The translations under genes and the position numbers were made by a program. Below are positions 443-20,975 of a DNA stretch of 64,000 nucleotides, piece by piece (the stretch's first letter is position 1; each line of letters starts with the position of its first letter). The DNA lies in assembly GCA_002989075.1 (NCBI GenBank), contig PSQN01000016.1, positions 3,364,336 through 3,428,335 on the forward strand, written 5' to 3'. Source of the DNA: Arthonia radiata. Taxonomy: Eukaryota > Ascomycota > Arthoniomycetes > Arthoniales > Arthoniaceae. The notes below the pieces were generated by a model. The model was given only the letters and a program-made list of their open reading frames with translations. It ran no database searches and was not told the DNA's origin.

Positions 443-1009
443 ATGGCACAGTTTCCAGAGATGGATCCAATTCCACTGTCCACTGCAGACCAGCCGCCAA
501 CCGCTCGATGCGTTCAACCTCTATCCGATCAACCTCAATCTGATCAACCGTCAGAAGATCAACCTCGCTTTGTCCGACCTCAACTAGAGCCACCGGAAAG
601 CGACGCTGATACGTCAACGAAGCTTGCCCTCAAGGTCATCTTGATGATAGTGGACTATAACCTCGAAGAAAGTCTCATCACCACACGTGACAACACTGAT
701 AGCTACGATGCCAGCTACTATCTATCTGCACTCACTCTCGCCCATACCTGTCGTGCGCTCCGCACCCACGTAATCGAGAAGACTGGGGAATATCATCGCA
801 CTGCGGAGGAAAACTGGATTGCGGCCGACCTTCACAAGTTCAACTCGAGGTGCAAACACAAAACCAAGAAATTCATTGCCAAGTACCTGTCTCTTTGCGA
901 CGACTGTGCAGCAAGATTCTACGAATCAACAGCTTTAATGGCACTAGACCTGAAGCTGCAGGAGGTGCTCAGGATCTTGAATGGAGAGATGGGGATCCAC
1001 CAAGGATAG
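443..1009 (+). CDS. FBC1: F-box-like/Cys-signature family protein (diverged)
   Basis: First member of the tandem family, 188 aa. The helix after the F-box-like start is visible (KLALKVILMIVDYNL, residues 60-74) but the usual LPxLPxE lead-in is lost, so this is a diverged copy. The family helix SALTLA lies at 95-100 and the Cys signature C137-x14-C152-x2-C155 is intact, followed by a Leu-rich C-terminal helix. The N-terminus has SDQP/EDQP repeats. The start was set at the ATG at 443; an open frame reaches back to 296, but those codons lie in a CT-rich leader. The function is not known. An adaptor role is inferred only from the F-box resemblance of its better-preserved neighbours. Confidence 0.7.
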   Translation: MAQFPEMDPIPLSTADQPPTARCVQPLSDQPQSDQPSEDQPRFVRPQLEPPESDADTSTKLALKVILMIVDYNLEESLITTRDNTDSYDASYYLSALTLAHTCRALRTHVIEKTGEYHRTAEENWIAADLHKFNSRCKHKTKKFIAKYLSLCDDCAARFYESTALMALDLKLQEVLRILNGEMGIHQG

Positions 1010-1434
1010 TGGACGGCGGCAAAGGCTGAGCATAATGGCGGGCGGGGGCGTGATGAGAGGCCGTGTCAGAAAACACACTCTGACATGATACGACCACGAG
1101 ATAGAGACGCAGACCGAAGATGGAGAGAACCAATGCGTTTTGAATGAGTCACTGCTTCAAGCATTCCTCTACTGCCACCTGCTGTATCCCGATGGCGTTG
1201 AGTCTGCCCCTAGAACTCAAGTCGCACGACGTCTGATGAGCAGCCTATGGAGCTTACAGGCACGAAGTTGCATGGACGCGTGATGGTCTCATTGGAAGAC
1301 TATTTCACCAACAGAGGCTGCTCTTCTCACCGTGCAGCTATCCTTACAATGGCTTCTCAGAGCACACCTGCTCTTCTTGTTACTTGCTTCCCATACTACA
1401 TGAAACAACTTATTTACCTCACAATACCCAAGCC
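1010..1434. other. intergenic, nothing recognised
   Basis: Spacer between FBC1 and FBC2. Short open frames exist but none shows the family motifs or other recognisable sequence. Confidence 0.5.
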
Positions 1435-2259
1435 ATGGCGGACTCCGTGATGGATCTGAGTGCGCAAGTAGAAGGCAGAATGGCTACTGATCTACCACCG
1501 GTGGTTATGTATCCGGCGTCCGCCTCGTCTGGCCTCACCACTCTTCTGTCCTCTAGATCGGCAAGTCCAGCTTCACCTACTGTTGGTCGCGTGTCCTCGC
1601 CTGACACTGCCACGCCCTCATCGCCGGCTACTGATACGCCAGTCACACTACCCAATGCAACAGGCTCTTTGATGAGGGCCAGGTATACGAAGGTCGCAAG
1701 CTTTTCATGCTCCAAGCTCAAGAAGGCGTCTCGTCGCAACAGCCGCGAACTGCCTCCTAACCTCCTCTCTAAGATCGTCTCATACCGCCTTACTGACGAA
1801 TTTCTCGCCACGTTCGACTCCGATGACTTCTGCGACCCTACCTATCAAACTTCCCTTCTCGCTCTCGGCACTGCTTCGCCGGTCTTCATCTCTCTCGTCA
1901 TTCAGAAGCTACAAGAGCATCAGAAGATCGTTAGAAAGCGTCGGGATCAGGTCTACGAGGCGCGTAAGACTCAGAGTGAGACATGCCTGGAGCAAGACCT
2001 GTGGTCAAAGACGCCTTGCGATCAATGTAAGAGGGCCAAAGAAAACTACGACGTCGAGGAAGCGTTCAAAGCTAGCCTGCGGAAGGTCATGTTGAGGCTC
2101 AAGGACACTGAAGGTCGACAGAACAAGGAGCGGCGGGAGCAAAGGAATGAGGAGAAGGAGGCGAAGAAGGCAAAAAAGGCGAGAACGGGTAAGAAGGTCG
2201 AGAAGGGCGCGATCGTTAGTAAGTGTAGAAAGGGGATATGGATCTCGAACCTGGCGTAA
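1435..2259 (+). CDS. FBC2: F-box-like/Cys-signature family protein with Lys-rich tail
   Basis: Protein of 274 aa, one of the longest array members. A Ser/Pro/Thr-rich, probably disordered N-terminal 100 residues precedes the F-box-like segment LPPNLLSKIVSYRL (106-119). The middle helix (LLALGTASPVFISLV, 141-155) is followed by C184-x10-C195-x2-C198 and a final amphipathic helix. Unlike most neighbours it ends in a highly charged Lys/Glu/Arg tail (about 228-258) that could act as a nuclear localisation or nucleic-acid-binding segment; that role is inference. The start at 1435 is in strong context (GCCATGG); the upstream in-frame ATG at 1384 would add 17 leader-like residues. Confidence 0.75.
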   Translation: MADSVMDLSAQVEGRMATDLPPVVMYPASASSGLTTLLSSRSASPASPTVGRVSSPDTATPSSPATDTPVTLPNATGSLMRARYTKVASFSCSKLKKASRRNSRELPPNLLSKIVSYRLTDEFLATFDSDDFCDPTYQTSLLALGTASPVFISLVIQKLQEHQKIVRKRRDQVYEARKTQSETCLEQDLWSKTPCDQCKRAKENYDVEEAFKASLRKVMLRLKDTEGRQNKERREQRNEEKEAKKAKKARTGKKVEKGAIVSKCRKGIWISNLA

Positions 2260-2866
2260 GACTTGCGCGGCAACTCATTGACTCACCCCGAGAGCCTTGC
2301 CGACTCCGAGTAAAAGGTCCGAGCTCCATCACAGCTGATGAGCCAAGTGTGAGACCGACTGGGCGTCGCGAGGCTGAACATCGTACCGATCTCTATACGA
2401 AAGAGAGAACATGAGCGAGGCGCTTAGTAGACGAGAGAAGAATGCTGAAGCGTGGCAGTCACCCTTAACAATGTTGCTCCAAAATTTTCCCCGTCTCTGC
2501 CGTACTGACAGCCTCATACCGAAAAAAATTAGTATAGCGAAGGCCCCTAACTTCTCAACCCTTCTTAAACGTCTTCGTCTTTTCGCAGCACCTGCATACT
2601 TAAGAGTCAGTTTGAGAGTACGTAGAATACTCCTGCGCTTGCGATAGCCCCTAATACGTCACCGAGGCAGAAGGTGCAAAAGTCGCAGAAGGTGTGGCGC
2701 TGATCCCTATTACTTTCGGTCGTTAAGATTTGGCAGAATTTTCTTGGCGCCAAAATTAGTTAGCTTCCTCTTTCCTCTTCTATCGATATCAAACAAATCT
2801 ATAACTTTAAAACCCTATATCCAGCAGTCAGCAACGCCCTCTTCTGGAGACACAAGTCCGCCCACA
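2260..2866. other. intergenic, nothing recognised
   Basis: About 600 bases with short open frames only. The last 120 bases are pyrimidine/AT-rich leader of FBC3, through which its frame stays open without looking coding. Confidence 0.5.
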
Positions 2867-3304
2867 ATGACCAGAACAAATGCCAACCCTACACCGCCGC
2901 CCAAGCGATTGCCACAGCTACCCGTCGAAATGGTCCACCAAATCCTTGCTGAGCGTCTCACGGACGATCTCTTCGATCTTATCAACGCGGGAACGGACTA
3001 CTCCGAAGCGTACACCTCATGCGTCATCTCAACAATGGCAGTCTCAGCAAGCTTTTCCAGGCTGGCGTTCGCGGAGATCTCTCATCAAGTCGCGCTCCAG
3101 CAGCAGATCTCCGATGAGGCCCAAGAAGCTTGGAAAATCCACGCTGATTCCTGCAGGGAAGGCTACGGTCGGGGTCCGCGCAAATGCCTTACGTGTATTG
3201 ACTTCGCCACTTCGGCCAGACGCAGAAGAGTGGTTCTTGCGGCGCTGGAGTGCACGACTAGGGCCTTGGACTGGGGGAGGTTCTCAATAGGCAAGGGGGA
3301 ATGA
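2867..3304 (+). CDS. FBC3: compact F-box-like/Cys-signature protein
   Basis: At 145 aa this is close to the minimal form of the family. LPQLPVEMVHQILAERL (15-31) is a clean F-box-like start, followed by an Ala/Ser-rich helix (about 55-75) and C96-x10-C107-x2-C110 with a basic RRRR stretch and a short closing helix. It is intronless. The start at 2867 (CACAATGA) was chosen because the upstream open frame from 2744 lies in leader-type sequence and would place 41 low-complexity residues before the usual basic N-terminus. It lies about 300 bp upstream of FBC4 on the same strand. Confidence 0.75.
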   Translation: MTRTNANPTPPPKRLPQLPVEMVHQILAERLTDDLFDLINAGTDYSEAYTSCVISTMAVSASFSRLAFAEISHQVALQQQISDEAQEAWKIHADSCREGYGRGPRKCLTCIDFATSARRRRVVLAALECTTRALDWGRFSIGKGE

Positions 3305-3607: not shown

Positions 3608-4093
3608 ATGACCAATGAGAAGAAGCGCAATGCGAACAAACGTCACAAGAAGAAACGCTTACCACTCCCAGAGCTGCCAACCGAAATCGTTCTTGAGATC
3701 ATCACCCTTCGCCTCAATGCCGACTTGAACAAGATCTCTACAGGCGGCGAGAATTTTCAAAAGTCAGCGCTGGGGTTTATGACGCACTCTGCAGCTGCCC
3801 GTAAATGCGTCTTCAACATCACCAGGCAAGGGATCAAACTCGCGCAGCAGAAACAGCATGAGTTTGAGCATCACCAATCTATGTGGTGTGAGGAACCATG
3901 TGCGAAGTGGTTACTTCAGCTCAGCTGGGGGGAGGAACACACCCTCTGGAATCATTGCACCGCGTGCCGGAAGGGAGACACCGACGCTGAGATTCAGAAA
4001 CAGCGCAACATGGAAGTCAAGCTCAGAGCCACAATGTCCTTGATGCAGTGGAAAGCTGAGGAGAAGGGTCGCATGATGCACGGTACTTGGTGA
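3608..4093 (+). CDS. FBC4: F-box-like/Cys-signature protein
   Basis: 161 aa. A very basic N-terminus (residues 5-17, Lys/Arg/Asn) leads into LPLPELPTEIVLEIITLRL (18-36), one of the best F-box-like matches in the array. The family helix is KSALGFMTHSAAARKCVF. Two Cys (94, 98) and the pair C117-x2-C120 make a longer-spaced version of the signature, with an intervening His-rich stretch (HQSMWC, HTLWNHC) that could add metal ligands. The start at 3608 (GGCAATGA) is the only sensible ATG. It is intronless. Membership of the family is clear from sequence; biochemical function is unknown. Confidence 0.78.
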   Translation: MTNEKKRNANKRHKKKRLPLPELPTEIVLEIITLRLNADLNKISTGGENFQKSALGFMTHSAAARKCVFNITRQGIKLAQQKQHEFEHHQSMWCEEPCAKWLLQLSWGEEHTLWNHCTACRKGDTDAEIQKQRNMEVKLRATMSLMQWKAEEKGRMMHGTW

Positions 4094-4495: not shown

Positions 4496-4969
4496 ATGAA
4501 GTCTTCATCCTCGTCCCCAAAGATCAAGCCACCGAATGACCGAAAGATACCTCAGCTGCCGACCGAAGTCATCCGTCACATCATCACACTTCGCCTGGCC
4601 GCTGACATGGCTGACTTCGAATTCGACTGCGAATGCGACCACATCCTCGACCGACCCGAGAACTACAACATGTCCGCTATAGCTTTAGCTAGGGCGTCCC
4701 CTCTACTCTCACACATCGTTTACGACATCGCGGTTCGCTATCTGGAGGCCGCGAAGAAACGTCACCAAGAAATTGCAATGCAGCTAAAAGAACATAAGCA
4801 AGCCTGCCCCCCGAAACGCGTTTCTGCCTTCCTGCCTGGTTGGAAACTCGAGTATCCTGACGAAAAGGCGGATGAGCTGGAAGAGTCGTTGCGATTGGCC
4901 GATTCGGTGAAGGCGGGGTTGAGTGTCGCGTTGCAACAATTGGAGAAGCATCGCGGGATCCTGACTTGA
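4496..4969 (+). CDS. FBC5: F-box-like protein lacking the Cys pair
   Basis: 157 aa. The N-terminal half is typical: basic/Ser-rich start, IPQLPTEVIRHIITLRL (18-34), an Asp/Glu/Cys insert (FEFDCECD), then SAIALARASPLLSHIVYDI (60-78) and the long amphipathic helix. The C-terminal half differs. Only the first Cys of the signature remains (C104) and the C-x2-C pair is absent, replaced by an acidic segment before the closing helix. This is a loss of the presumed metal-binding module in an otherwise open reading frame, so the gene may have changed function or be an early decaying copy. Confidence 0.72.
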   Translation: MKSSSSSPKIKPPNDRKIPQLPTEVIRHIITLRLAADMADFEFDCECDHILDRPENYNMSAIALARASPLLSHIVYDIAVRYLEAAKKRHQEIAMQLKEHKQACPPKRVSAFLPGWKLEYPDEKADELEESLRLADSVKAGLSVALQQLEKHRGILT

Positions 4970-6782: not shown

Positions 6783-7439
6783 ATGGCGCACTCACCGTCC
6801 ACTCCGAGTGAGGCCTCATGCCAAGTCGAACCCTCAGTACCATCACCAGTCACCGCAGCACACTCACCGTTAGTTTCGAGCGAAATCGGCCCACAAAATA
6901 AGCCCTCCGCACCACCAACACTCCCCAACGAGATCATCTCCCACATCGTCAGCCTACGCCTCCAAGACGACCTCTTGGACCTCCAATTAGCCAAGTTTGG
7001 CATCCCCCTTGATAATAGCTACCTCACTTCCGCCATCGCACTCCGTGCTACGTCCCCTGCCTTCGGCGAAGATGCGGCCCGTACCACCAAAGGGCACATC
7101 AAAGACATGCGCGACTGTCGAGATGACTTGGCCGCGGAGCGTGAATCACACGTACAGCGTGAACCCCACCAAAAGCCTGAGGAGAAAAGGAGCCGCCGCA
7201 GGGCAGGGAGCCGGCGTATGCATGACACTCCTGAAGTAGTTTGCGAAACGTGTGAGGATTACCAGCGCCGACTCAGGGAGCTTCGCAACGTTGAGATGGA
7301 AGTGAAGAAGGTGTGGCTGATGCTCGATCCGAACGGTGAGAAACGGGAGAGAGCGAAACGGTTCTTGCCCGCGCTGGATGTCAAGTTGGAAGGCGAGTAT
7401 CTGCGACAGAATGGGTGGGGCGTGAAGGTGCTTGGTTGA
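6783..7439 (+). CDS. FBC6: F-box-like/Cys-signature protein
   Basis: 218 aa. The N-terminal 45 residues hold two related AHSP...SSE-type segments and are Pro/Ser-rich. PTLPNEIISHIVSLRL (45-60) is the F-box-like start; SAIALRATSPAFGEDA (83-98) is the family helix. A basic, Arg-rich linker (135-146) leads to C154-x2-C157, with C112 as the likely first Cys, giving unusually wide spacing. The C-terminus extends about 40 residues beyond the usual closing helix. Start at 6783 in ACAATGG context. Only 137 bases separate its stop from the FBC7 start. Confidence 0.77.
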   Translation: MAHSPSTPSEASCQVEPSVPSPVTAAHSPLVSSEIGPQNKPSAPPTLPNEIISHIVSLRLQDDLLDLQLAKFGIPLDNSYLTSAIALRATSPAFGEDAARTTKGHIKDMRDCRDDLAAERESHVQREPHQKPEEKRSRRRAGSRRMHDTPEVVCETCEDYQRRLRELRNVEMEVKKVWLMLDPNGEKRERAKRFLPALDVKLEGEYLRQNGWGVKVLG

Positions 7440-7576
7440 GCGGTGGGGCAAGTCTCGAAGTACTTTGTAGCACAGGGATGCCAAGACTTGAGCTATGAAC
7501 TGCATCACTGATGCCTCTTTCTTTCTTCCTGCCTCAGTGCAGGCAGAATTGTACCACAGCTAGATATAACGATGCA

Positions 7577-8167
7577 ATGACACCAGCTCTTGTGTCAGCG
7601 CCGGTGTCTGGTGTCGGAAGCAAAAAGCACAAACGCCCTCCACCGCAGCTGCCTACTGAGACCATCTTCCACATCATTGATTACCGCTTAGAGGAGGAAA
7701 TCTCTGCCCACAGGTTCACCGACGGAATAGAAGAAAAGGTATACGCCAAATCAGCACTTGCGCTTAGTGCGATATCTATTGCTACGCACGAGTACGTTAG
7801 ACAGGCTACCAAGCGCTATTTAGCATGTGCAAAGACACACGAGCAAGATATCAAAGCTGAAGAGCATTGCTTGGGTGTGTCTAACCCCGCAGATGACTCT
7901 TTTCGAACACAATGCGATGGCTGCGAGGTACGGTGGCAAAGGCTGTGTTTGGCGGTAAGGGGACGTTCGACGCTGGAGGTGACGTTGCAATGGCTAATGC
8001 GGGAGCGCGGCTCGGATATCCGAGCGTGGTGTCGGTGGGCAAGATGGGTCGCCGCTAATACGCCTGGCTTTGTGCCAAAGGGACTGCAGTCGACGCCAGT
8101 TGAAGACCGAGGCGATCAGGAGGACAAGCAACACAGCCAGTGGAAGGTTGCGATCCTGAGGATTTGA
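7577..8167 (+). CDS. FBC7: F-box-like/Cys-signature protein
   Basis: 196 aa. A basic, Pro-rich N-terminus (KKHKRPPP) runs into QLPTETIFHIIDYRL (24-38). The segment KSALALSAISIATHEYV (58-74) is followed by a long helix, then C98-x14-C113-x2-C116. The C-terminus is longer than average, with a Trp/Arg-rich run and an acidic-polar end. It is closely related to the broken FBC8 downstream: both share SAL-L-AIS, EYV and an E-V-T-L-Q helix after the Cys pair, so the two are probably a recent duplicate pair. Start at 7577 (GCAATGA). Confidence 0.77.
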   Translation: MTPALVSAPVSGVGSKKHKRPPPQLPTETIFHIIDYRLEEEISAHRFTDGIEEKVYAKSALALSAISIATHEYVRQATKRYLACAKTHEQDIKAEEHCLGVSNPADDSFRTQCDGCEVRWQRLCLAVRGRSTLEVTLQWLMRERGSDIRAWCRWARWVAANTPGFVPKGLQSTPVEDRGDQEDKQHSQWKVAILRI

Positions 8168-8371: not shown

Positions 8372-8825
8372 ATGGCGCAAGAAAATACATCAGATGCCGG
8401 GGAAGCCACTAAGCCATCAAAGTTGTCAAAGCCGCCTCCCACTCTCCCTAAGGAGCTCGTGTTTGACATCATCGATCTCAGACTGATGGACGACACCAAA
8501 GCTACGCTCGCCGTGTTACCGGGTACTGACCACACTTATCACTGGTCGGCACTGGGGCTCGCAGCTATCTCACCTGCCGCCTGCGAGTACGTCATCAAGA
8601 AAGTGAAGGCTGATATTGAGTCTCTTATTGATCCCCGGAAGAGAGGCCAACGGTTGGGCTCGGCATCGGAGCTCCTCATGCAAGCACATGTGTAGTATCT
8701 GCCTGAAATCGATCAATGCAATGAGGGACTATGATACGCTGAAGCGGTTGTGGGAGGTAACTCTGCAAGATCTGGAGGTCGTTGGCCGTCGACGGTTCGT
8801 GTCGGGTGGCGGGGTATATCATTAG
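8372..8825 (+). pseudogene. FBC8: frame-broken F-box-like family gene
   Basis: The first frame gives 107 aa with PTLPKELVFDIIDLRL (23-38) and SALGLAAISPAACEYVI, then ends at 8695 just where the Cys signature should follow. The missing part is present in another frame overlapping from about 8616: CSICLKS and a WEVTLQDLEVV helix matching FBC7. A one-base shift somewhere in about 8616-8693 therefore separates the two halves. No intron with credible splice sites fits so short an overlap. It is either a recently inactivated copy of FBC7 or an assembly error. The start at 8372 is in ACAATGG context. Confidence 0.7.
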
Positions 8826-9086
8826 GACGCGAAAAGCCGCGTGCAGAAGGAGTGAGGAGGCATGATAGCTGACTGCGAGGATATTGCCGCTATGGACGCG
8901 TCGAGGTCCATAAGTGAGGTCTAGGGTCCGTTGCATTCGTGGAGGACGTAAGTAGCCTTCAAAGGCCGAGCGTGGCTCTCAAGAGCTGCGTATAAAGCCA
9001 AAGAGAGTTTCTTGATGATGACTTTCGTAATAAAAATCCTCATCAGCAGTGTTTGGAAGCTGCTTGTGATTACACACACCGGCACT

Positions 9087-9725
9087 ATGCGACGACGACG
9101 AGCTCGACGACAGCGCAGGCAGCGGAGATTGAGGGAACAGAGACGACGGCAACAGCAGCGACGACATCGTCGACTTTCCCAGGCAGTACAAGCTCAATCG
9201 CTCTCTACTATTGAGCCTGAACCTCCGAGACTGCCCCTTGAGATAGTGATAATGATCATCGACCATCGCCTGGCAATGGACGTAACCGACATCGGTACAG
9301 CAGCAGCTGAATGCCTTACAGCGAAGGTGGAAGATGGGCTCCATGAGCTCCTTGAGGAGAACGATGAAGCTTCGCAGCATCCGTTGATCGAAGCCAATGA
9401 GGCGTATGCGAGATCGACCCACAGCCTAGCTGCATTGAGCAAATGGATGCGTAAGAGGGTGATCGAATCCACAAGTCAGTACAGAGAGACAGCCCACTAC
9501 CGATATTGCATCTCGTCGGGGCGTCCTCGAAAAGGATGTTTCTGGCTTCGTGGAACCGACGGGATATTTAGGCCGTTGATGTGTCGGCAGATGTGGTTCA
9601 AGGAGATGTGTGAGAAGTGTCGGTACTGGTGGATCAGGAAGCGGGTCGATCTGGTGGTGAGTGCGGCATTGAAGCATGCGTTGAATGCTCTGCAGTCAGA
9701 GGAACATGTCTATTTGGGCTTGTGA
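9087..9725 (+). CDS. FBC9: F-box-like protein with Arg/Gln-rich N-terminus
   Basis: 212 aa. The first 29 residues are almost only Arg and Gln with a few His/Leu, an extreme basic tract that would serve as nuclear/nucleolar localisation or RNA binding (inference). PRLPLEIVIMIIDHRL (47-62) is the F-box-like start. An acidic insert (90-96) precedes the helix RSTHSLAALSKWMRKRVI (109-126). The Cys-rich part is expanded: C141, C151, C166 and C175-x2-C178, with several Trp/Tyr. Start at the ATG at 9087; earlier in-frame codons belong to the leader. The gene is intronless and lies about 260 bases after the broken FBC8. Confidence 0.75.
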   Translation: MRRRRARRQRRQRRLREQRRRQQQRRHRRLSQAVQAQSLSTIEPEPPRLPLEIVIMIIDHRLAMDVTDIGTAAAECLTAKVEDGLHELLEENDEASQHPLIEANEAYARSTHSLAALSKWMRKRVIESTSQYRETAHYRYCISSGRPRKGCFWLRGTDGIFRPLMCRQMWFKEMCEKCRYWWIRKRVDLVVSAALKHALNALQSEEHVYLGL

Positions 9726-9909
9726 AAGACTCCGGGATTGGGGGACGGATGGGGACTGCCGGGTTTCGATGCGATGTTGAGGCGGTCACCATCACAGCTG
9801 CCTTCCATTCACACCGCTCCTCCCGTCAGTCTCTCACAAATCCCCTCACATCCTCAGCTGTTAAATCTTTTCGTCGTTCGTTCGTCCGCACCTTCCAGCT
9901 TCAAACGTG

Positions 9910-10101
9910 ATGATCTCTTTTCCCGGCAACACAAGGCCGCCATCAAAGAGAAGGGCCGATGCAACCTCAAGCGCGCACTCCATCTCCAATGATAAATCGC
10001 TGCCTGAGCCTCCTTTCGAGGTCATGCTCCAGATCATCGGCGCCCTCCTCGATATGGATTTCACAGACCTCTTCAATTATACAAAAGGAATACAAGACTG
10101 A
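9910..10101 (+). pseudogene. FBC10: truncated F-box-like relic
   Basis: A 63-codon frame starting at 9910 contains the family N-terminus (basic/Ser-rich) and an F-box-like run EPPFEVMLQIIGALLDMDF, then stops at 10101. The residue usually Leu before the Pro-x-Glu step is altered. No C-x2-C segment can be found in any frame in the 300 bases downstream, so the 3' half appears deleted or decayed beyond recognition. It keeps the plus-strand orientation of the array. Confidence 0.6.
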
Positions 10102-10441: not shown

Positions 10442-10957
10442 ATGCCGACTGTACCAATGCCGAAGCGTTTATCTCGCAAGCGGCCTCTCCCAACACTACC
10501 CAACGAGATTCTCATCAACGTTGTTGACCAAACACTCAAAGCAGCATACAAGAACTTGGTCGAGCAGTCGCCCCCACAGAGTCCGCGGATCTTCAAATCG
10601 GTCAACTCGTCGCACAAGCTCACATCAAGCGTCTATCATGACCAAGCCATCTGTCTTGCTTCTATCGGTGGCCTGTTTCTCGAGCGCGCGCTGAAACAAA
10701 CCGCACGGTATGACGACTACTTGAATGACCACTGGGCGAGCTGCCGCAAAGAACACGAAGCCCGCACGAAGGAATGCGTGGTGCAAGTACCGCCGCAAGA
10801 CCCGAGCCTGGAGCTGTCACGAACGTGCGGCAAGAAAAAAGCGTGCTTGCGGGGACAGTGCTGTCACTGCCTCGAGACTTGGCTGCGGGAGCGTTGGGCC
10901 TGGGCTTTGAGCGATGCGATGCGGAGAACAATGTCGAAAGTGATACACAGGAAGTGA
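10442..10957 (+). CDS. FBC11: F-box-like protein with expanded Cys region
   Basis: 171 aa. A basic start (KRLSRKR) leads directly to PLPTLPNEILINVVDQTL (15-32). The helix DQAICLASIGGLFLERAL (67-84) fits the family pattern. The Cys half is richer than usual: C101, C112, C129, C135, C140, C141 and C143, so two overlapping metal sites are possible. The closing helix (WLRERWAWALSDAMRRTM) is amphipathic. The start at 10442 follows the leader-type open frame from 10400. It is one of three adjacent members (with FBC12 and FBC13) sharing the (P/A)LPNE(I/V)L form of the F-box-like start. Confidence 0.77.
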   Translation: MPTVPMPKRLSRKRPLPTLPNEILINVVDQTLKAAYKNLVEQSPPQSPRIFKSVNSSHKLTSSVYHDQAICLASIGGLFLERALKQTARYDDYLNDHWASCRKEHEARTKECVVQVPPQDPSLELSRTCGKKKACLRGQCCHCLETWLRERWAWALSDAMRRTMSKVIHRK

Positions 10958-11186
10958 GGTTGCTCGAAGGTAGCCTGATAGCTGGGGTTTTGCGAGATAC
11001 CTGGGAGTTGACAGAGGAATAGTGATAGCGTAGATGGCACCGGCAAGGGGCGGTCAGCAAGGTCCATCATGGCCACACCGCTCCTTCCGCCTCAAACACC
11101 CCTCGACTGGACGATTCTCATCTTCCAAGCTGCTCTTCCCTCTTCTGTCTGCTTCGGGCTGCATTCCAGTCCGGGATTCGTGCAAG

Positions 11187-11741
11187 ATGCCACGCAGGCT
11201 GAGCTTCAGAAATGCTCGGCAGCCCGTACGCTCGACACGTTGTCCACCAGCTCTGCCAAACGAGATCCTTCTGCTGATCATTGACCTTCGCTTCGCCAAA
11301 CTGATTGAGGCACTCTCCAGCTCTCACACGTTCGTTACATGGACTCGTATGCAAAGCCTCTCGGCAAACGCTGTGTATGCCGTCCACAGTGGCGTTTTGG
11401 ACCTCGCTTCAGTCAATGCGCTTTTTCACACTCGTGTCACCCAGCACATCAGACACCAATCCGAGATTGCTCGCGAGCAATATATCGATTCTTGCACCGC
11501 ATTTGAAGCAAAAGCGGTGGAGTGCATGAAAAAGCCGGCGCCGCGTTATTGGAATGAAAAGCAGTGGGAAGGGATGGGTGAGAGATGTCTGAACGGTCGA
11601 TGTGGCGGCTGTCGGGAGGCTCGAGTCCTGACCAACAGGTGCCAGAATTTGAAGGGAAGGTTGGCGTGGGTGCTGGATCAACTGGAGCGGATGAAAGACC
11701 TTGATCAGCTGATCAAACGCCAGAATGTTGGGCGGCTCTGA
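11187..11741 (+). CDS. FBC12: F-box-like/Cys-signature protein
   Basis: 184 aa. An Arg-rich N-terminus is followed by PPALPNEILLLIIDLRF (20-36). The family helix (VLDLASVNALFHTRV, 70-84) is preceded by a 20-residue Ser/Ala-rich insert. The Cys half has C103, C113, C134 and C139-x2-C142, resembling FBC11 and FBC14. The closing helix (LAWVLDQLERM) ends in a short charged tail. The start is placed at 11187, where the typical basic N-terminus begins. The longer open frame from 11034 runs through CT-rich leader. Only 154 bases separate its stop from the next start. Confidence 0.77.
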   Translation: MPRRLSFRNARQPVRSTRCPPALPNEILLLIIDLRFAKLIEALSSSHTFVTWTRMQSLSANAVYAVHSGVLDLASVNALFHTRVTQHIRHQSEIAREQYIDSCTAFEAKAVECMKKPAPRYWNEKQWEGMGERCLNGRCGGCREARVLTNRCQNLKGRLAWVLDQLERMKDLDQLIKRQNVGRL

Positions 11742-11895: not shown

Positions 11896-12381
11896 ATGTC
11901 TCCAAGTAGTTTCAGCAAGCCACTGCCAACACTCCCGAATGAAGTACTGCTCAACATCCTCGACGCCCGCCTAGACGCTGATGTCACAACATTCCGTTCT
12001 TCCGTCACCAAACAAGCAAGAAACCAAGTCTGCTCTGTCGACACCCAATCTCTCAACCTGTCATGCTTTACGTTCTACCGGGAGTCCACTTTCGCGCTTG
12101 CTGAGATCAACCCAATGTTCCATGGACGGGTCGAGAGGAAGATGTCCGAGTACGCGGAAGCAGCGAAGCAACGATTCCAGAGCGCGGACATCGCAAAGAG
12201 CAACGTGTCCGTCTATTGTCCACCTTGCGGTCTGGGGTGGGAGATCTGTCCGAATTATCTGCATTGGGATGTGTGTGTGTCCTGGCTCGCCGAGTATTGG
12301 TCGGAAGGCTGTCTGTGGGGAATGATGCACCAGTTGAACATGGAGACCTGGGCGCGTCAGATGAACGAGATACACTCCTAA
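11896..12381 (+). CDS. FBC13: F-box-like protein with rearranged Cys motif
   Basis: 161 aa. PLPTLPNEVLLNILDARL (9-26) is a near-consensus F-box-like start. After a Cys-containing insert (C46, C57) comes STFALAEINPMFHGRV (64-79) and the usual helix. The Cys signature is rearranged: C108-x2-C111-x6-C118-x8-C127, so the paired Cys come first rather than last, and Trp/Tyr residues crowd the C-terminus. The start at 11896 follows a pyrimidine-rich leader through which the frame remains open from 11833. Whether the reversed order still binds metal cannot be told from sequence. Confidence 0.75.
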   Translation: MSPSSFSKPLPTLPNEVLLNILDARLDADVTTFRSSVTKQARNQVCSVDTQSLNLSCFTFYRESTFALAEINPMFHGRVERKMSEYAEAAKQRFQSADIAKSNVSVYCPPCGLGWEICPNYLHWDVCVSWLAEYWSEGCLWGMMHQLNMETWARQMNEIHS

Positions 12382-13446: not shown

Positions 13447-13944
13447 ATGGCTCAAAGGAGCGAGGTGCAGCATTATTCACTTCCGAGAGAGATAATCATC
13501 ACGATTATCGAGACGCGACTCGAAACAGATCTTGCTGTCCTACGGACTCTCTCCAGCTACGAGATGGGCAATCCAACGCTCTATCGCAGAAACGCGGCCA
13601 ACATCGCTATCGCACACCCTTCGCTATGTGACGTTGTGTCCCGACAAGTGCGACTCCATCTTGGCGAAGCGCAAAGACGCTACCAATCCTGCCTTGATGA
13701 TTTTCACGAGCAAGCGGACAGGTGCACGCCTGTCCGCCCCGAGCACTCGTTCAACTCGCGCCATTTTGATCATATGGAGGGAAGGTGTAGCAATTGTCGA
13801 GATGCATGGGCCCGGTTCGTGCACACTCGGCCCTTGCGAAATGAGCTGCATGAAACGCGCTTTGATCTGAGGCGGCGGACTCGGCACGATCCAGTTCTAG
13901 ATAAGCACGCAGCATGGAGGTTGAGGTTAAGTAAAATCTGGTGA
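13447..13944 (+). CDS. FBC14: F-box-like/Cys-signature protein
   Basis: 165 aa. The N-terminus is very short, with YSLPREIIITIIETRLETD (10-28) starting almost at once; only one of the two Leu-Pro steps is present. The helix NAANIAIAHPSLCDVVSRQV (49-68) fits the family. C82, C93, C114 and C117 give the extended signature with a His-rich stretch between them (PEHSFNSRHFDHMEGRC). The closing helix is basic. The start at 13447 (AAAAATGG) replaces an open frame that begins only at a non-ATG codon. It is isolated by about 1 kb upstream and 750 bases downstream, the loosest spacing in the array. Confidence 0.75.
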   Translation: MAQRSEVQHYSLPREIIITIIETRLETDLAVLRTLSSYEMGNPTLYRRNAANIAIAHPSLCDVVSRQVRLHLGEAQRRYQSCLDDFHEQADRCTPVRPEHSFNSRHFDHMEGRCSNCRDAWARFVHTRPLRNELHETRFDLRRRTRHDPVLDKHAAWRLRLSKIW

Positions 13945-14699: not shown

Positions 14700-15203
14700 A
14701 TGTTACCAGCTCCGAAGCCGCTTCCAACCCTCCCGGATGAGATAATCCTCCACATCATCGATCTCAGCTTGAAAAGCGCAACGATACAGACTAAAAGAAT
14801 CATCGACACCTACAACAACACGAAAGACCTCGACCCGCCACCATGCTCGAAACGCAGTATTTATTGTCGCACGGCCACGATCTTAGCTGCTGTGTCGACT
14901 GGGTTGCAGAAGCACGTCAAGGAGCGCACCCAAAAATACTCTCAGATCGCCGACCAACGCCTTGCTAGCACTGATTCCAAGCTCATGACACACTATGACG
15001 CCTGTTCAGAAAAGCGCCAGAGTCCGACCAAACGAGCTAGGCCGCGCCCAGAATGTGTTTCGGGTGTATGTGGAAACTGTGTTCCGGCGGGCATACAGCG
15101 ACGAAAGGATGAACAGATCGCCATGCAAGCTTACTTTGTGGATGTGCAGGTTGGGAATATGGGGGGTGAGCAGTCGGAGACTTTGTTTGAGGTGGAAATC
15201 TGA
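14700..15203 (+). CDS. FBC15: F-box-like/Cys-signature protein
   Basis: 167 aa. PLPTLPDEIILHIIDLSL (7-24) is among the closest matches to the family consensus. A 25-residue polar insert with two Cys precedes the helix RTATILAAVSTGLQKHV (57-73). C102-x16-C119, C124-x2-C127 complete the signature after a basic Arg/Pro stretch. The C-terminal helix is short and ends acidic. The start at 14700 (GACAATGT) lies at the end of a leader-type open frame from 14604. Intronless, plus strand. Confidence 0.78.
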   Translation: MLPAPKPLPTLPDEIILHIIDLSLKSATIQTKRIIDTYNNTKDLDPPPCSKRSIYCRTATILAAVSTGLQKHVKERTQKYSQIADQRLASTDSKLMTHYDACSEKRQSPTKRARPRPECVSGVCGNCVPAGIQRRKDEQIAMQAYFVDVQVGNMGGEQSETLFEVEI

Positions 15204-15515: not shown

Positions 15516-17084
15516 ATGCCTGTGCCGCGCCCACAAACACCAGCCGAGTCCGGCTCCGACGACATGCCGCAGCACACCTCCCGCATACCACGGATTCTCA
15601 AACGCCTCATCTCGCCGTCAACGCATGTACCGCCGCCGATGCCTCCAGACGTGCGTACCAAAGTCTCGGAGTCTCGTCTCAATGTCTTACGTGAAAAGGC
15701 TGAGCAAAGCTTCGTGTCAAGCGAGCCTGCTGCCAAATATTGGGAGATCTCACCCGGTCAGACCTTATCCGTACGACCATCGCTCGAAGCACGCTCGTCG
15801 CAGTTACCCCGACGGTCAGTCGCGCCCAAGGCCACCCCGCCACCACGGCTATCAATCTCGCCCAAGCCTCCAAGCTCACCGCGACTATCGATCTCACCAC
15901 GCCCTTCAGTCTCTCCAAGTCCGTCGATCTCACCAAAGCCATCGATCTCGCCAAAACCACCGACCTCTTCGAAAGCATCGACCTCTTCGAAGCCATCAAT
16001 CTCTGCAAAGCCGTTGATCTCTATGAAGGCGCCAACTCCACCGAAAGATAACACGTCCGACTTCTCAGGGTTCGTGTTTCCATGGGGACCCCCCGCCCCT
16101 CCCGACGAGCCATCAACCACACCCACACAGTCAACGTCTGACTTTTCGGGATTCATATTTCCATGGGGACCTCCGGCTCCTCCAGGCACCCTGAAAATTC
16201 CAAGCAACCATGATCACAACCGTAATCCAACAGCCCTGCATCCCACCGCACCACAGCCACCACCCGCTGTGCATCTGCCACTCAACGTCATACCCCCGAC
16301 CGACTTCAACACCCTCATCTCACCACGTCTGTCAACCTCTCGCGAACAAACATTGACTCCTATTCCCGAATCCGCATTCACCTGCAGCCCGTCACAGTCC
16401 GGCCCTGAATCATCAGCGTCGACAGTCCGCTACCTCACGCCGCCGGAAACCGCCTCATTACAGCCATCGCTTGCGGCGGTACCAGCACTCTCGACCGAAC
16501 GATCACCATCGACCCAACCGCAACTCCCGGCCCTACCACCACCCTCCCCCAACCTCCCATTCAAGATCATTCGCCAGATCACGACTCACATTCTCAACAG
16601 CGCCTTTCACACGACCCTCACCTGCCCATCACCCGACTACTCTCATCGACTCGCCGCGCTGACCCTATGCCGAGTCTGCCCCGCCTTTCACAGCCACATC
16701 CTCACACTTGTGTCCGCGCACCACGAGCTCGTCAAAGAGCTGGAAGTGGCCGCGCACATGGAGCTGAAGCGACAGATCCAAGCGTGCAAATGCTCGAAGG
16801 AGAAGACGGAAGAAGGGAGAGCGCTATGCGCAATGTGTGAGGAGAGACTCGAGGAGAAGAGAAGGTGGAGAGGACTAGAGTTCGGCGTGTGGAGGAGTGT
16901 GAAGCTTGTGAAGGGGGTGGGGAGTGAGTTGGAGTGGGCGAAGCAGGAGGAGGGGGTGATGGGTGTGGGCGGTGAGTTGAAGGAGTGTTTGGAGGTTCTG
17001 GGTCTAGAGGAGAGGGTGGGAGAGGACGGGGAGGTGAAGTTGGTGGTAGAAGGTACCGAGGTCGTTGTGAGGGATGGGTGGTAG
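15516..17084 (+). CDS. FBC16: F-box-like protein with long Ser/Pro repeat extension
   Basis: 522 aa, about three times the family norm. Residues 1-340 are low complexity. Between about 100 and 170 there are hexapeptide-like repeats of the SISPKP type. Two near-identical copies of SDFSGF(V/I)FPWGPPAPP follow at about 181-197 and 208-223. The FBC core sits at the C-terminus: an F-box-like segment NLPFKIIRQITTHIL (346-360), the helix RLAALTLCRVCPAFHSHIL (378-396), then C424, C426, C438-x2-C441 and a charged tail with Glu/Gly repeats. The start at 15516 is the first ATG of this frame. The extension could be a scaffold or degron region (inference). The repeat keeps several frames open. Confidence 0.75.
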   Translation: MPVPRPQTPAESGSDDMPQHTSRIPRILKRLISPSTHVPPPMPPDVRTKVSESRLNVLREKAEQSFVSSEPAAKYWEISPGQTLSVRPSLEARSSQLPRRSVAPKATPPPRLSISPKPPSSPRLSISPRPSVSPSPSISPKPSISPKPPTSSKASTSSKPSISAKPLISMKAPTPPKDNTSDFSGFVFPWGPPAPPDEPSTTPTQSTSDFSGFIFPWGPPAPPGTLKIPSNHDHNRNPTALHPTAPQPPPAVHLPLNVIPPTDFNTLISPRLSTSREQTLTPIPESAFTCSPSQSGPESSASTVRYLTPPETASLQPSLAAVPALSTERSPSTQPQLPALPPPSPNLPFKIIRQITTHILNSAFHTTLTCPSPDYSHRLAALTLCRVCPAFHSHILTLVSAHHELVKELEVAAHMELKRQIQACKCSKEKTEEGRALCAMCEERLEEKRRWRGLEFGVWRSVKLVKGVGSELEWAKQEEGVMGVGGELKECLEVLGLEERVGEDGEVKLVVEGTEVVVRDGW

Positions 17085-17380: not shown

Positions 17381-17935
17381 ATGGCCAGTCCACCGCACGT
17401 GCCGATTAGCAAGCCTCCGCCAAAGCTACCGAATGAGATTGTCTTCATGATTGTCGACCGCCGTTTGAACGCACAGATCGAGGACGACAAAGCATCTACA
17501 TACACTCAGAAACCCAAATACCTCAACCTAGCACTCAAACTCGCAGTGGTGTCGCGCGATGCTATGGTCTACGTGAAGCAACATACCAAGCGAGAGTTTC
17601 AAATCACGAAGCGAGCAGCAGCCGACTCAATCAAACTCGCACGTGAAGTACGAGTGACCTGCGAGCATTTCAGTTGCCGATATAGATCTACGATAGTTTG
17701 CACTAGGTGCACAAAATACATTGGAAGAGCTGAGAAAGATCGAGATCTCCTCAAGCAGATCTGCGTTATTTGCATGGCAGTCAAGGAGATGCGGAAGGTT
17801 GTGGCAGGCGAAGGTGAGCGTGGCCGTCACTGGTGGCTTATGCTGTCGCAACTGGCCATTGACTCGCGCAGGATCAGATACTTAGCGGGAAGTCGGCGGA
17901 ATGGATGGCAAGTCCGTGATGAGAGTGTGGCCTGA
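17381..17935 (+). CDS. FBC17: F-box-like/Cys-signature protein (3' subgroup)
   Basis: 184 aa. PPPKLPNEIVFMIVDRRL (12-29) starts the core. LNLALKLAVVSRDAMVYVKQHTK (48-70) is the family helix, and C94, C99, C107-x2-C110 form the signature. After it comes a helix KQICVICMAVKEMRKVV that is conserved, in variable form, in FBC18, FBC19 and FBC20, marking these four adjacent genes as a subgroup from recent local duplication. The start is the ATG at 17381 after an AT/CT-rich leader. This is one of the two members of the subgroup that remain fully open. Confidence 0.78.
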   Translation: MASPPHVPISKPPPKLPNEIVFMIVDRRLNAQIEDDKASTYTQKPKYLNLALKLAVVSRDAMVYVKQHTKREFQITKRAAADSIKLAREVRVTCEHFSCRYRSTIVCTRCTKYIGRAEKDRDLLKQICVICMAVKEMRKVVAGEGERGRHWWLMLSQLAIDSRRIRYLAGSRRNGWQVRDESVA

Positions 17936-18644
17936 GGTGAAACAAGATAGAAAGGCCCCTTCGGTATCAATGCGGGCTGTATCGGTCACTGGTGGTGAGC
18001 CGGAAGACACCAGCTTAGCGTTTGGTAAACCCTGGGTGGAAGAGTGAAAGACTGAGCGCACTTTATGCGATAATTGGACCAGCTTTAGACGCTCTGTATC
18101 AACAAAGGCCACTCAATCTCAGGCTTGCTGAGGCTCTGCGAAACGGTAATCTCAAGGCGAATCGACCTGAATTTTCAATCAAGCCTAACAGCTTGATAAG
18201 CCAATCCTAGCAGGTACCAGCTTGGCTCTATGTCGCACAAGCCAAACTAGGTCAAATTTTGTCAAGCTTACCTTTGCAATCTTTTTGCGTTACTGAGGTA
18301 CTCTTTGTCAAGCGTCTAACGTTGCCATTATATCGTCACTAAGGCGTCCGGGCGTTTTATTATCGTCGTCTTAGCGTCTGTCGCCTTGTCAAGCTAGACT
18401 GGCTTGGATTGCTACTTCCCAAAGCAATCCAGGTTTATATGCGCCAAGCCAAGGTTTCTCTCAATCAAGCCGTCTGATATTTGACTGGGCTTGGGAACCC
18501 TGCTTTCACCTGCACGTCCGGAAGACCCTGCGCGCTTGTAACATCTAGAATTCTTGGAGCATTCCAGCCACACTCCCGGCTGTCAAGTGTTCTGTATCTT
18601 CTTGCCGACATCCACTCTCAGAAGCGGACTCAAGGACACAGAAC
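17936..18644. other. AT-richer spacer with repeated short motifs
   Basis: A 700-base gap, visibly richer in A/T between about 18160 and 18480. It holds repeated TCAATCAAGCC and TTGTCAAGC motifs and a perfect short hairpin, described separately. No coding region is recognised. Confidence 0.5.
18175..18471. repeat. AT-rich segment bounded by 11-bp direct repeats, with hairpin
   Basis: TCAATCAAGCC occurs at 18175-18185 and again at 18461-18471. Between them TTGTCAAGC occurs three times, and TGGATTGCT (18405-18413) pairs perfectly with AGCAATCCA (18423-18431) across a 9-base loop. AGCCAA and TTGGCT also face each other near 18200-18230. The layout could be a decayed small non-autonomous transposon, but no clear terminal inverted repeats are seen. 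Confidence 0.4.
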
Positions 18645-19136
18645 ATGGCTCAACCTCCCACCCTTGATGTAGACAAGCCGCTTCCAGTGCTACCGCCAGA
18701 AATCATTTCCCTGATTGTTGACCATCTGCTCGACCAAATCATCCAACGGGCTACATCTACGCCCGGAGTCATTCGAAACATATCCTACCACCGTGTGGTC
18801 TCTAGGCTTGCCAAGCTCTCCAAGACAATGCTCGCATGCGTTGAGCGCCGCGTGAAGAGAGATTTCGAGTGCATGAAGAAGATGGCGTTTGCTTCGTCAG
18901 ATGCATGTCGGAGGGAGTAAGACGCCGAGGGTCATGAAGGCTTTTGTACATGCGAGGTGTGTTGGAGCTGCAGCGATACCTGTCGGCTGGCTGAGAGAGA
19001 CAAGAACATGGCGCAGCGTATATGCGTCACACACACAGTGCTGCAGCGGATGAGAGAAATCGCTGAGCATAGACGAGGTAATTATGGGCCTGTTCGCTTG
19101 CCACGAGCGCGGAATGATTCTGGGAATTTTGACTAA
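18645..19136 (+). pseudogene. FBC18: F-box-like family gene interrupted by one stop
   Basis: The first 91 codons hold a normal N-terminal half (PLPVLPPEIISLIVDHLL, residues 12-29; VVSRLAKLSKTMLACVERRV). They end in a TAA at 18918-18920. The same frame then stays open for 71 more codons to 19136 and encodes the expected second half: a Cys cluster (CTCEVCWSC) and the subgroup helix with RICVTHTVLQRMREI. With the flanking frame fully conserved, a single nonsense change is the simplest reading. A GTAAG sequence overlaps the stop, but splicing there would delete the conserved Cys segment. It is either a young pseudogene or a gene with a shortened product. Confidence 0.7.
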
Positions 19137-19514
19137 TGGCGACGCATAGTCTGATACCGCGCAAGCTGATGACCTCAACAACGACAAAGAGGTGCTGTGG
19201 TTGCTGAGGATCATGACGGTGTGGAGGAGACCGTGATTGGGGCTCAGTGTGTGAAAATCGCAGCGGCGGTGACAGTAGTGAAAACAAGCGAAGGAAGTCT
19301 AGTGAACATTTCGATATGCGAATGTGTCTCCTACCAGGCTCATTCTGAAGCTGCGGTATAACGTTGTCAATCACGTGGCAACTGTGCCAAGCGATCCTTT
19401 CGCGCGATGCCACTAGTTCTTTCGACTTGCAACCTCTCACAACTCTCCTATCCATCACACTCGCCGTTTGTACAAATCTCGCAAGATCGACGACAGCTTG
19501 CGTCACCAGAAACA
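19137..19514. other. intergenic, nothing recognised
   Basis: About 380 bases. A long minus-strand open frame overlaps it but has no recognisable content. The end is leader of FBC19. Confidence 0.45.
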
Positions 19515-20009
19515 ATGGAAACGGTTGACCTGCGTGACTTGCACATCAAAGCCAGACGTCCTCCAACGCTCCCACATGAAGTCATGCTCATGATCGCCGA
19601 CATCTACCTACAGCAAATCGTCGACAATGACATTGATGATTGGAAAAGCTGGCATGGCGCCAGAAAGTCACATGATGCGGCCCTGAACCTCGCCAAGGTT
19701 TCGACAGGATTCCTTGCTCACGTCAAAGGCCGCATCGATCAACATTTCGGGAAGATTGCACAAGCTGTGGCTGCCTCATACGACTCTTGGCGTCAGATGC
19801 AGCCTTGCGGACGTGGGCCATCGGACCCAGACCGTGATTTTTTGGCGTGTAACGGATGTGATGCGGTGGTGATGTATTTCTGGGGTATGAAGGCGTTGGC
19901 GAGAGATATGAGCATTACTTGCATGGCTCTGCTTCGCATGAGTAGAGTCGTGGCAAGGTGCGACTTCTCAGGTAAGTGCTGCCCTTTCGTCTTTTCCGTC
20001 GAACAATGA
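19515..20009 (+). CDS. FBC19: F-box-like/Cys-signature protein (3' subgroup)
   Basis: 164 aa as an unspliced frame. PPTLPHEVMLMIADIYL (16-32) and AALNLAKVSTGFLAHVKGRI (55-74) define the core. C98-x13-C112-x2-C115 is the signature and the subgroup helix (DMSITCMALLRMSRVVAR) follows. A good donor (CAG/GTAAGT) lies 40 bases before the stop, with a possible acceptor at the TAG near 20022, so the last 14 residues could be replaced by splicing. The start at 19515 is in AACAATGG context. It is closest to FBC20, with which it shares T(G/D)(F/I)LAHV. Confidence 0.75.
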   Translation: METVDLRDLHIKARRPPTLPHEVMLMIADIYLQQIVDNDIDDWKSWHGARKSHDAALNLAKVSTGFLAHVKGRIDQHFGKIAQAVAASYDSWRQMQPCGRGPSDPDRDFLACNGCDAVVMYFWGMKALARDMSITCMALLRMSRVVARCDFSGKCCPFVFSVEQ

Positions 20010-20343
20010 AAACTGAGTAGATGCGGAGGAAATGATCTGAACTGAAGACATCAAGGGAGGCTCGCAGCAGCCAGTCTCGTGTGTCCGACGCCGCAAAGCG
20101 CTATGGCCGGCTATGTGATGGTGAGAGGTTGAAGGAGTGAAGTGAGCATAACATGGTCGGCGGAATTTGTAGTCTTCTGGGTCACCGCTGAAGTATCAGA
20201 AGGCGGGAGTTTGCAGCTAAGCTTGCACTTGCTTGATCGAGCTAGGCAATGCACATCTTGACCCTCGGCACTCTCTCGTTCGATCCGCTATCTGCGAAGC
20301 CCACTCAGCCTCATCATCAACCCTTGCAAGTAAGAACGGCGAG
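20010..20343. other. intergenic, nothing recognised
   Basis: Spacer of about 330 bases between FBC19 and FBC20. No feature is recognised beyond the possible acceptor of FBC19 near 20022. Confidence 0.45.
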
Positions 20344-20975
20344 ATGACGACGGATCCAGACGCCAGTCAGAAAAAGTCGCTGCCGGTATTGCCATTCGAA
20401 ATCGTCCTCAAGATCATCGACTGTTGCCTTCTACAAGCAATCGATTGGAACGTGGCGCATGTCGACCTGTGGGATGATGATGATGGCGATCTCATCGAAT
20501 TTCATCACCAGGCTCTCGATCTCGCCGAATATCGACTGACATCCTCGCCCACGTGGAAAATCGTTTGTTTCAGCATTGGCTGGCTGTGAAGGATTTATGC
20601 GTCGCCTCGCGCAACACATGGCAGGAACGACAGCGGTTGCAACCCGGGTGCAAAGTAGTTTCGGGTGAATACTACAGTGATCGCGACCTATGCCGTGGTT
20701 GCCGAAGTTTGTACCTTCAGGCAAGGTTAGACAACGCGCTTGCGAAGGACATATGCATTACTTCTGTGGCTGTGAGTCGAGCATGGGAAACACTATTGCG
20801 GTGCAGAGCTGAGAAAGAATCTGGTAGGCGTAAGATCATGCTATGGCTGACTTTGCAATTGAGCGATTATCGACAGTGGGAGCGAACAGACCTGAACGAG
20901 TCGCTAGGTCAGGGTGAAAAAGTTCGACTGCGTCGCCTCGGACGGAGTCTGCGTCGGGTGGTCGTGACTTGTTGA
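20344..20975 (+). pseudogene. FBC20: frame-broken last member of the array
   Basis: The frame starting at 20344 gives the usual N-terminus (LPVLPFEIVLKIIDCCLLQ) and the start of the family helix (HHQALDLAEY), then leaves the family pattern near 20535 and stops at 20589. The neighbouring frame picks up exactly there with TDILAHVENRLFQHWL, aligning without gap to TGFLAHVKGRIDQHFG of FBC19. It runs to 20975 with C-x2-C (DLCRGCRSL), the subgroup helix (DICITSVAVSRAW) and a longer basic tail. A small indel of about one base around 20531-20540 therefore splits an otherwise complete gene. Either a fresh pseudogene or a sequencing error. Confidence 0.72.

What the first reader, a model, noticed from the sequence alone, without database searches (positions are those of the whole stretch)
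443..20975. Twenty-unit same-strand tandem array of a small F-box-like/Cys-signature gene family
Seen directly: about 20 small genes in 20.5 kb, all on the plus strand, share LPxLPxEIhxxII near the N-terminus, an A-L-x-L-A-x-x-S helix, and C-x(n)-C-x2-C before a closing helix. The proteins differ widely outside these points, so the set is old yet still being copied. Established: F-box proteins begin with an LP-x-E-L/I helix that binds Skp1. Inference: a lineage-specific bank of SCF adaptors or related scaffolds diversifying by birth and death. I do not recognise the full architecture as a named family.
Basis: partly seen in the sequence, partly recalled or inferred. Interest (0 to 1): 0.82.

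Follow-up and report, generated by a model that had tools for sequence, protein, structure and literature searches.

The report
Fungal arrays of F-box-like gene copies
A fungal chromosome carries a row of about twenty small, very unlike gene copies, all pointing the same way, and the same genome has several more such rows; their shared front end resembles the docking piece of proteins that mark other proteins for destruction, so they may be a bank of recognition adaptors.

Summary
Window 296-20972 carries 20 units, all on +: 16 intact ORFs, 3 interrupted ones, 1 fragment. Each of the 16 is found by a profile of the other 15 (E 8e-9 to 5e-20). A 21st straddles the left edge. The N-terminal half is shared; C-termini differ by row (Cys-bearing hairpin in C2 and C9, no C-x2-C in C16). 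"Still being copied" is not supported: the 40 best of 263 paralogue pairs reach at most 44% identity. Pfam F-box models find 65 and 93 places in this genome, none in the rows. Yet profile-profile comparison matches two segments, in order, to the halves of this genome's own F-boxes, separated by an insertion; the second match is weak. Foldseek found no similar fold. Best reading: insertion-split F-box-like adaptors with a conserved docking end and a variable end. Skp1 binding is untested; other fungi could not be searched.

The parts
296..1009 (+). unit 1, intact ORF 237 aa; family domain from about 614; LALKVI in place of LPxEI
   Evidence: leave-one-out E 2e-14
1435..2259 (+). unit 2, intact ORF 274 aa, lysine-rich tail
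   Evidence: E 9e-16
2867..3304 (+). unit 3, intact ORF 145 aa
   Evidence: E 1.5e-11
3608..4093 (+). unit 4, intact ORF 161 aa
   Evidence: E 6e-14
4496..4969 (+). unit 5, intact ORF 157 aa; lacks C-x2-C
   Evidence: E 1.7e-18
6783..7439 (+). unit 6, intact ORF 218 aa
   Evidence: E 2e-17
7511..8167 (+). unit 7, intact ORF 218 aa; second structure model built on 7583-8164, mean pLDDT 77.3
   Evidence: (E 2e-19)
8372..8822 (+). unit 8, interrupted: N-terminal half 8372-8695, weak C-terminal half in another frame within 8607-8822
   Evidence: (E 2e-15 and 0.054)
9015..9725 (+). unit 9, intact ORF 236 aa with a long acidic loop insertion
   Evidence: E 1e-14
9865..10098 (+). unit 10, fragment with only the first ~29 profile positions
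   Evidence: E 0.0097
10442..10957 (+). unit 11, intact ORF 171 aa
   Evidence: E 7.5e-14
11034..11741 (+). unit 12, intact ORF 235 aa
   Evidence: E 1.7e-18
11896..12381 (+). unit 13, intact ORF 161 aa
   Evidence: E 2e-16
13447..13944 (+). unit 14, intact ORF 165 aa
   Evidence: E 2e-16
14700..15203 (+). unit 15, intact ORF 167 aa; AlphaFold2 model, mean pLDDT 84.5
   Evidence: (E 5e-20)
15516..17084 (+). unit 16, intact ORF 522 aa: about 340 aa P/S/T-rich leader, then the family domain
   Evidence: E 2.5e-12
17381..17935 (+). unit 17, intact ORF 184 aa
   Evidence: E 1.6e-17
18645..19133 (+). unit 18, interrupted by an in-frame TAA at 18918-18920
   Evidence: E 1.4e-12 and 0.013; 1 TAA inside
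19407..20009 (+). unit 19, intact ORF 200 aa
   Evidence: E 8e-9
20344..20972 (+). unit 20, interrupted: N-terminal piece 20344-20589, remainder in another frame within 20484-20972
   Evidence: (E 0.0028 and 3.8e-5)
1..125 (+). 3' end of a further unit lying mostly left of the window (window -615 to 125)
   Evidence: E 1e-11 with the window profile
40745..41496 (-). divergent relative in two frames (41113-41496 then 40745-41083)
   Evidence: 41113: E 1.7e-5 with the window profile; 40745 piece only after iteration
45046..45540 (-). divergent relative
   Evidence: E 0.014; E 3e-11 after iteration, by inclusion
50498..50902 (-). divergent relative
   Evidence: (E 2.9e-4)

Best explanation
A large, old family of small genes without visible introns, kept in several same-strand tandem rows that arose by tandem duplication and then diverged. 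Shown: one homologous family; same-strand rows; conserved N-terminal half (LPxEI helix, loop, ALxLAxVSxxF segment); C-termini that differ by row (H/Q-x3-C...C-x2-C in many C2 and C9 members, no C-x2-C in C16); several broken units. Inferred: the N-terminal half is a derived F-box-like domain in which an insertion separates F-box helix 1 from helices 2-3. It docks the proteins on Skp1. The divergent C-terminal hairpin or coiled coil binds different targets, so each gene is a different substrate adaptor of an SCF ubiquitin ligase. The rows would act as a repertoire, most simply for surveillance of foreign or selfish proteins or for self/non-self recognition.
For: Family and rows: leave-one-out; window-only profile finds C9 28 of 28 at E <= 5.2e-4 and C16 17 of the 18 later accepted at E <= 0.095, against two reversed hits at E 0.2 and 0.39. 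Strand: 21, 30 and 18 fragments on +, 0 on - in the C2 row and the C9 and C16:230-250 kb stretches. F-box relation: hhalign 84.8%, score 27.8 against a 60-shuffle maximum of 13.9; second half alone 11.3 against 8.3; in sliding 30-column windows only two segments align over several columns, to F-box positions 5-24 (scores up to 24.2) and 23-39 (11.5-12.0), in order. Entropy in bits per column: H1 2.14, C-x2-C 2.36, H2-H3 start 3.04, H4 3.24, H3 rest 3.40, linker 3.57, loop 3.77. Cys/His: C9 columns H 73%, C 53%, C 77%, C 70%; C2 Cys 71% each; C16 C-x2-C in 0 of 18. One place matches Skp1 PF01466. Precedent: C. tropicalis KSS antidotes, clustered, fast-evolving, F-box-like by structure but not by sequence (PMC12680543, passages).
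Against: No Pfam F-box hit above cut-off; no F-box place of the genome lies in the rows. Profile of this genome's F-boxes against the row fragments gives E 0.006 at best, over the first helix only (two of its 12 rows were misframed). Both models show a first helix of 27 and 21 residues and a third of 35 and 27, longer than textbook F-box helices (recalled). Foldseek best E 0.65 and 0.41 (PDB) and 0.10 (viral), no F-box among the 50 listed. The F-box after position 39 is not matched. The second-half match is weak (21.6%), and with the first helix kept, shuffled second halves reach 27.9 against 28.3. The C-terminal closing helix is nearly as conserved as H2-H3, so 'variable back end' rests mainly on loop, linker and differences between rows. 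No known substrate-binding domain. No expression or binding data.
Confidence: 0.42

Rival explanations
1. A stand-alone helical-bundle family, not an SCF adaptor: the LPxEI helix is part of a self-contained bundle or dimer interface, and the proteins act as scaffolds, for instance by oligomerising through the C-terminal hairpin or coiled coil.
For: Confident long-helix model without an F-box match; no F-box model hit; weak coiled-coil-type Pfam matches in members: HALZ 4 of 67 (best E 0.019), DivIC 4 (0.14), ZapB 3 (0.034), TSC22 1 (6.5e-5).
Against: Two collinear profile segments match F-boxes, and no other stretch of the family profile does.
Confidence: 0.33
2. A relic: old rows that are now decaying and drifting, with little present function.
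For: 4 of 20 window units broken or fragmentary; no recent duplicates among the 40 best of 263 paralogue pairs.
Against: 16 of 20 window units keep an open frame and the conserved positions at 23% mean column identity; the 28 C9 units lie in stop-free frames of 134 aa or more.
Confidence: 0.13
3. Secreted proteins or effectors of a host-associated fungus.
For: Tandem rows of small cysteine-bearing proteins are common among fungal effectors (recalled).
Against: Only 2 of 16 intact ORFs (296 and 9015) have a strongly hydrophobic stretch near the first ATG (15-residue Kyte-Doolittle mean above 2), and both have later in-frame ATGs before the domain. No signal-peptide predictor was run.
Confidence: 0.05
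4. Repeat-induced point mutation drove the divergence of recent copies.
For: Ascomycetes often carry RIP (recalled).
Against: Dinucleotide indices of the row equal those of the flanks: 0.57/1.30 in 1-21000 against 0.52-0.64/1.29-1.32 in three other window stretches.
Confidence: 0.02

Closest known systems
Canonical F-box domain (Pfam PF00646, PF12937)
   Same: LPxE[IL] first helix; ALxLAxVSxxF segment aligned with F-box positions 23-39, in order
   Different: about 18-column insertion between the halves; long helices in the models; F-box tail not matched; no Pfam or Foldseek hit
Caenorhabditis KSS/KSL F-box-like proteins (PMC12680543, passages seen)
   Same: clustered, fast-evolving paralogues whose F-box is mostly not seen by sequence
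   Different: KSS carry a C-terminal solenoid, and Skp1 (SKR-1) binding is reported; here the C-terminus is a helical hairpin or coiled coil and binding is untested
Tandemly duplicated F-box genes of Caenorhabditis (PMC8665587, passages seen)
   Same: tandem duplication of adaptor genes on a large scale
   Different: there the F-box is recognisable; here no recent pair was seen
Fungal F-box proteins (PMC7991009, passages seen)
   Same: same kingdom, SCF components
   Different: that survey saw no F-box cluster in Macrophomina phaseolina; here rows of 20-28 (though this genome also has a small group of recognisable F-box-like genes at C3:358639-365383)
DUF3420 (Pfam PF11900)
   Same: weak match to the LPxEI region of the consensus (E 0.12; 0.027 without the loop)
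   Different: 13-15 bits against a cut-off of 24.9

Membership tests
F-box (PF00646/PF12937) | Profile score above the curated cut-off | tested here: not met
   no F-box family listed for 16 members at E <= 10; PF00646 in 3 of 67 at best E 0.079, 25 of 80 families shown; no F-box place in the rows
F-box (PF00646/PF12937) | LPxE[IL] first helix | tested here: met
   LP and I at 90% or more; hhalign to F-box positions 5-22, score 27.8
F-box (PF00646/PF12937) | Compact three-helix unit of about 40-50 residues | tested here: not met
   insertion between the halves; model helices 13-39, 54-65, 67-101
F-box (PF00646/PF12937) | Helices 2-3 pattern (LxxLAxVSxxW/F) | tested here: inconclusive
   in-register match, score 11.3 against shuffle maximum 8.3, hhalign 21.6%
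F-box (PF00646/PF12937) | Structural match to solved F-box proteins | tested here: inconclusive
   Foldseek: no F-box in the 50 listed of 277 and of 323 matches; no positive-control model run; second aligner unavailable
F-box (PF00646/PF12937) | Binds Skp1 and joins a cullin-1 ligase | not testable with these tools
   one place in the genome matches Skp1 PF01466; no docking tool
F-box (PF00646/PF12937) | Known substrate-binding domain (WD40, LRR, kelch and the like) | tested here: not met
   none listed in Pfam scans
Zinc-binding Cys/His module | Four conserved metal ligands | tested here: inconclusive
   H 73%, C 53%, C 77%, C 70% in C9 columns; three Cys at 71% in C2, His weak there; strict H-x3-C with C-x2-C in only 4 of 21 and 2 of 30

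The most novel reading that the evidence does not exclude
A fungal counterpart of the nematode and plant adaptor repertoires: probably well over 80 SCF adaptors with an insertion-split F-box, kept in one-strand rows with row-specific C-terminal recognition modules, serving as an intracellular immune-like or self/non-self system.
Probability: 0.2. Interest if true: 0.85.

Novelty: new variant of a known kind. Interest (0 to 1): 0.58.

Why it matters
Large F-box repertoires built by tandem duplication are described for nematodes and discussed for plants; one fungal survey whose passages I saw found no F-box cluster in its species. If these rows are adaptors, fungi have such a repertoire hidden from domain databases. 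It would give a test bed, in an organism where whole rows can be deleted, for the idea that adaptor repertoires are intracellular immunity or the seedbed of selfish elements.

Tried and rejected
Chance ORFs: rejected by leave-one-out and reversed controls. Recent copying: not seen in what was examined. RIP: no signal. Introns as the cause of the broken units: no plausible GT-AG intron seen by eye in the DNA printed; no splice predictor was run. Pfam side hits (Holin_2-3 E 5e-5 for one member, BORCS6 E 7e-4 for the consensus) lie below their cut-offs and were taken as chance or coiled coil. PDB sequence search with the alignment: best E 0.046, to a mitochondrial ribosomal protein; rejected. Viral structure library: best E 0.10. 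Shared upstream element: TTCTTG lies in 9 of 18 window upstream regions against 1.1 expected; rechecked, it is in 9 of 20 C2, 5 of 27 C9 and 1 of 17 C16 upstream regions against 10.6% of background stretches, at scattered positions; so perhaps a C2-row feature, not a family one. Species identification was tried only by a 5.8S search, which found nothing. Paper searches showed no title on such fungal rows in their listings, several of them capped (20 of 73, 12 of 88); this is not proof of absence.
Full report
Observation. The window lies in a 33.5-Mb genome of 16 contigs, at C2:3364336-3428335. That it is an ascomycete is inferred from gene content and was not tested. Within 296-20972 there are 16 intact plus-strand ORFs with the described signature, three interrupted units and one fragment, 20 in all. 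Mean column identity of the 16 is 23%. A profile of 15 recovers the sixteenth in 16 of 16 cases, E 8e-9 to 5e-20. One unrelated ORF (5575-6465) sits inside the row and has no Pfam match at E 0.001.

Extent. The row continues left of the window: a unit spans -615 to 125. The profile built only from the window finds 28 units in C9:1315188-1337842 (28 of 28 at E <= 5.2e-4), two more at 1347-1349 kb (E 0.039 and 0.0087), and 17 on C16:231-249 kb at E <= 0.095, of which several are weak; reversed sequences give two hits, at E 0.2 and 0.39. With the iterated profile an eighteenth C16 unit appears and reversed sequences give none up to E 0.5. The final set is 74 fragments at E <= 1e-3: 21 plus and 4 minus on C2, 30 plus on C9, 18 plus and 1 further plus on C16. 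The iterated E-values include those members by construction. A consensus query gave 80 places at E <= 10 across the genome, with more groups at C3:1281-1308 kb, C16:205-267 kb and C16:1143-1148 kb, many at weak E-values. A 4-kb sample of C3 holds five more plus-strand fragments, E 6e-6 to 2e-13 in that small search. Not everything could be fetched.

History. On a tree of 69 N-terminal domains the row label changes 12 times, against at least 26 in 500 shuffles, and neighbours are closer than random order (as low in 3, 0 and 10 of 300 permutations for C2, C9 and C16). Branch support was not examined. This is the mark of tandem duplication. Yet the best-scoring pair is 36% identical over 157 aa, and the 40 best of 263 pairs do not exceed 44%: the copies examined are old. 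Dinucleotide indices show no RIP signal. Four of 20 window units are broken or fragmentary.

Anatomy. AlphaFold2 with window members only gives unit 15 a mean pLDDT of 84.5 and helices 13-39, 54-65, 67-101 and 128-154; unit 7 reaches 77.3 with a like order of helices. Column entropy is lowest in the first helix (2.14 bits) and at the C-x2-C (2.36), then H2-H3 start 3.04, H4 3.24, rest of H3 3.40, linker 3.57, loop 3.77. In C9 the columns before and in the hairpin hold H 73%, C 53%, C 77% and C 70%; in C2 three Cys at 71% each, with the His mostly replaced. A metal clasp closing a hairpin is my inference; a strict H-x3-C with C-x2-C is found in only 4 of 21 C2 and 2 of 30 C9 fragments. In C16 the C-x2-C is absent in 18 of 18 and the tails look like coiled coil, by eye. 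So a shared front end is joined to back ends that differ between rows.

Is it an F-box? By curated models, no: PF12937 and PF00646 find 93 and 65 places in this genome at E <= 1, none in the rows. The 67-member scan gives PF00646 three times at best E 0.079. The family consensus gives PF00646 at E 0.73, and without its loop PF12937 at E 0.092 over most of the F-box. By profile-profile comparison with 12 F-boxes of the same genome the first helix matches with score 27.8 (60 shuffles: maximum 13.9). The ALxLAxVSxxF segment alone scores 11.3 (shuffle maximum 8.3). In sliding windows these are the only two segments that align over several columns, to F-box positions 5-24 and 23-39, in order. The extra score for the second half in the joined, loop-less test is small (28.3 against 27.9 for the best of 60 shuffles with the first helix kept), so the second half is suggestive, not proven. 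Foldseek found nothing at E 0.001 or better in PDB or the viral library; no positive control was possible.

Mechanism. Most likely a conserved Skp1-docking front and a target-binding back, each gene a different adaptor (confidence 0.42). Shown: homology, rows, conserved and variable parts. Inferred: Skp1 docking, ubiquitination, repertoire role. The nematode KSS antidotes show that an F-box-like end can lack sequence likeness and still bind Skp1 (PMC12680543, passages). Caenorhabditis shows species-specific tandem expansion of F-box genes (PMC8665587, passages). A survey of one fungus saw no cluster (PMC7991009, passages). In this genome, however, recognisable F-box-like genes also form a small same-strand group: five PF12937 places within C3:358639-365383, three of them over the cut-off.

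Novelty. No Pfam family covers these proteins, but fungal proteomes could not be searched, so the family may be known under another name. I rate it a new variant of a known kind: adaptor-like tandem repertoires, here with a split F-box-like domain in a fungus.

Noticed in passing
window 5575-6465 (+): The one longer ORF inside the row that is not a member; 296 aa, no Pfam match, with an internal repeat near the C-terminus (AVSWSDSN...EE).
   Followed up: partly
window 15516-17084 (+): Unit 16 has a roughly 340-aa proline/serine/threonine-rich leader with short repeats before the family domain.
   Followed up: no
window 40745-50902 (-): Divergent minus-strand relatives lie on either side of a plus-strand gene with a weak FAD-binding match (42792-43529); further weak LPxE-type ORFs at 44600, 46053 and 47223.
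   Followed up: partly
C16:231415-248658 (L045, L046): Eighteen same-strand relatives with coiled-coil-like tails in place of the Cys hairpin.
   Followed up: partly
C3:358639-365383 (-), own genome: Five PF12937 F-box-like places on one strand within 6.8 kb (three over the cut-off): recognisable F-box genes also sit in a small row here. Whether they link the split family to canonical F-boxes was not tested.
   Followed up: no
upstream of the C2 row units: TTCTTG in 9 of 20 upstream stretches against 10.6% of background; not shared by the C9 and C16 rows.
   Followed up: partly
window 21231-23099 (-): Protein that looks LysM-like by eye; Pfam gave no match at E 0.001.
   Followed up: no
window 24460-26145 (+), 36892-38304 (+), 56419-57735 (+), 59368-61665 (+): Ordinary neighbours: glycosyl hydrolase 47, AMP-binding enzyme, enolase-superfamily protein, RING protein.
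   Followed up: yes
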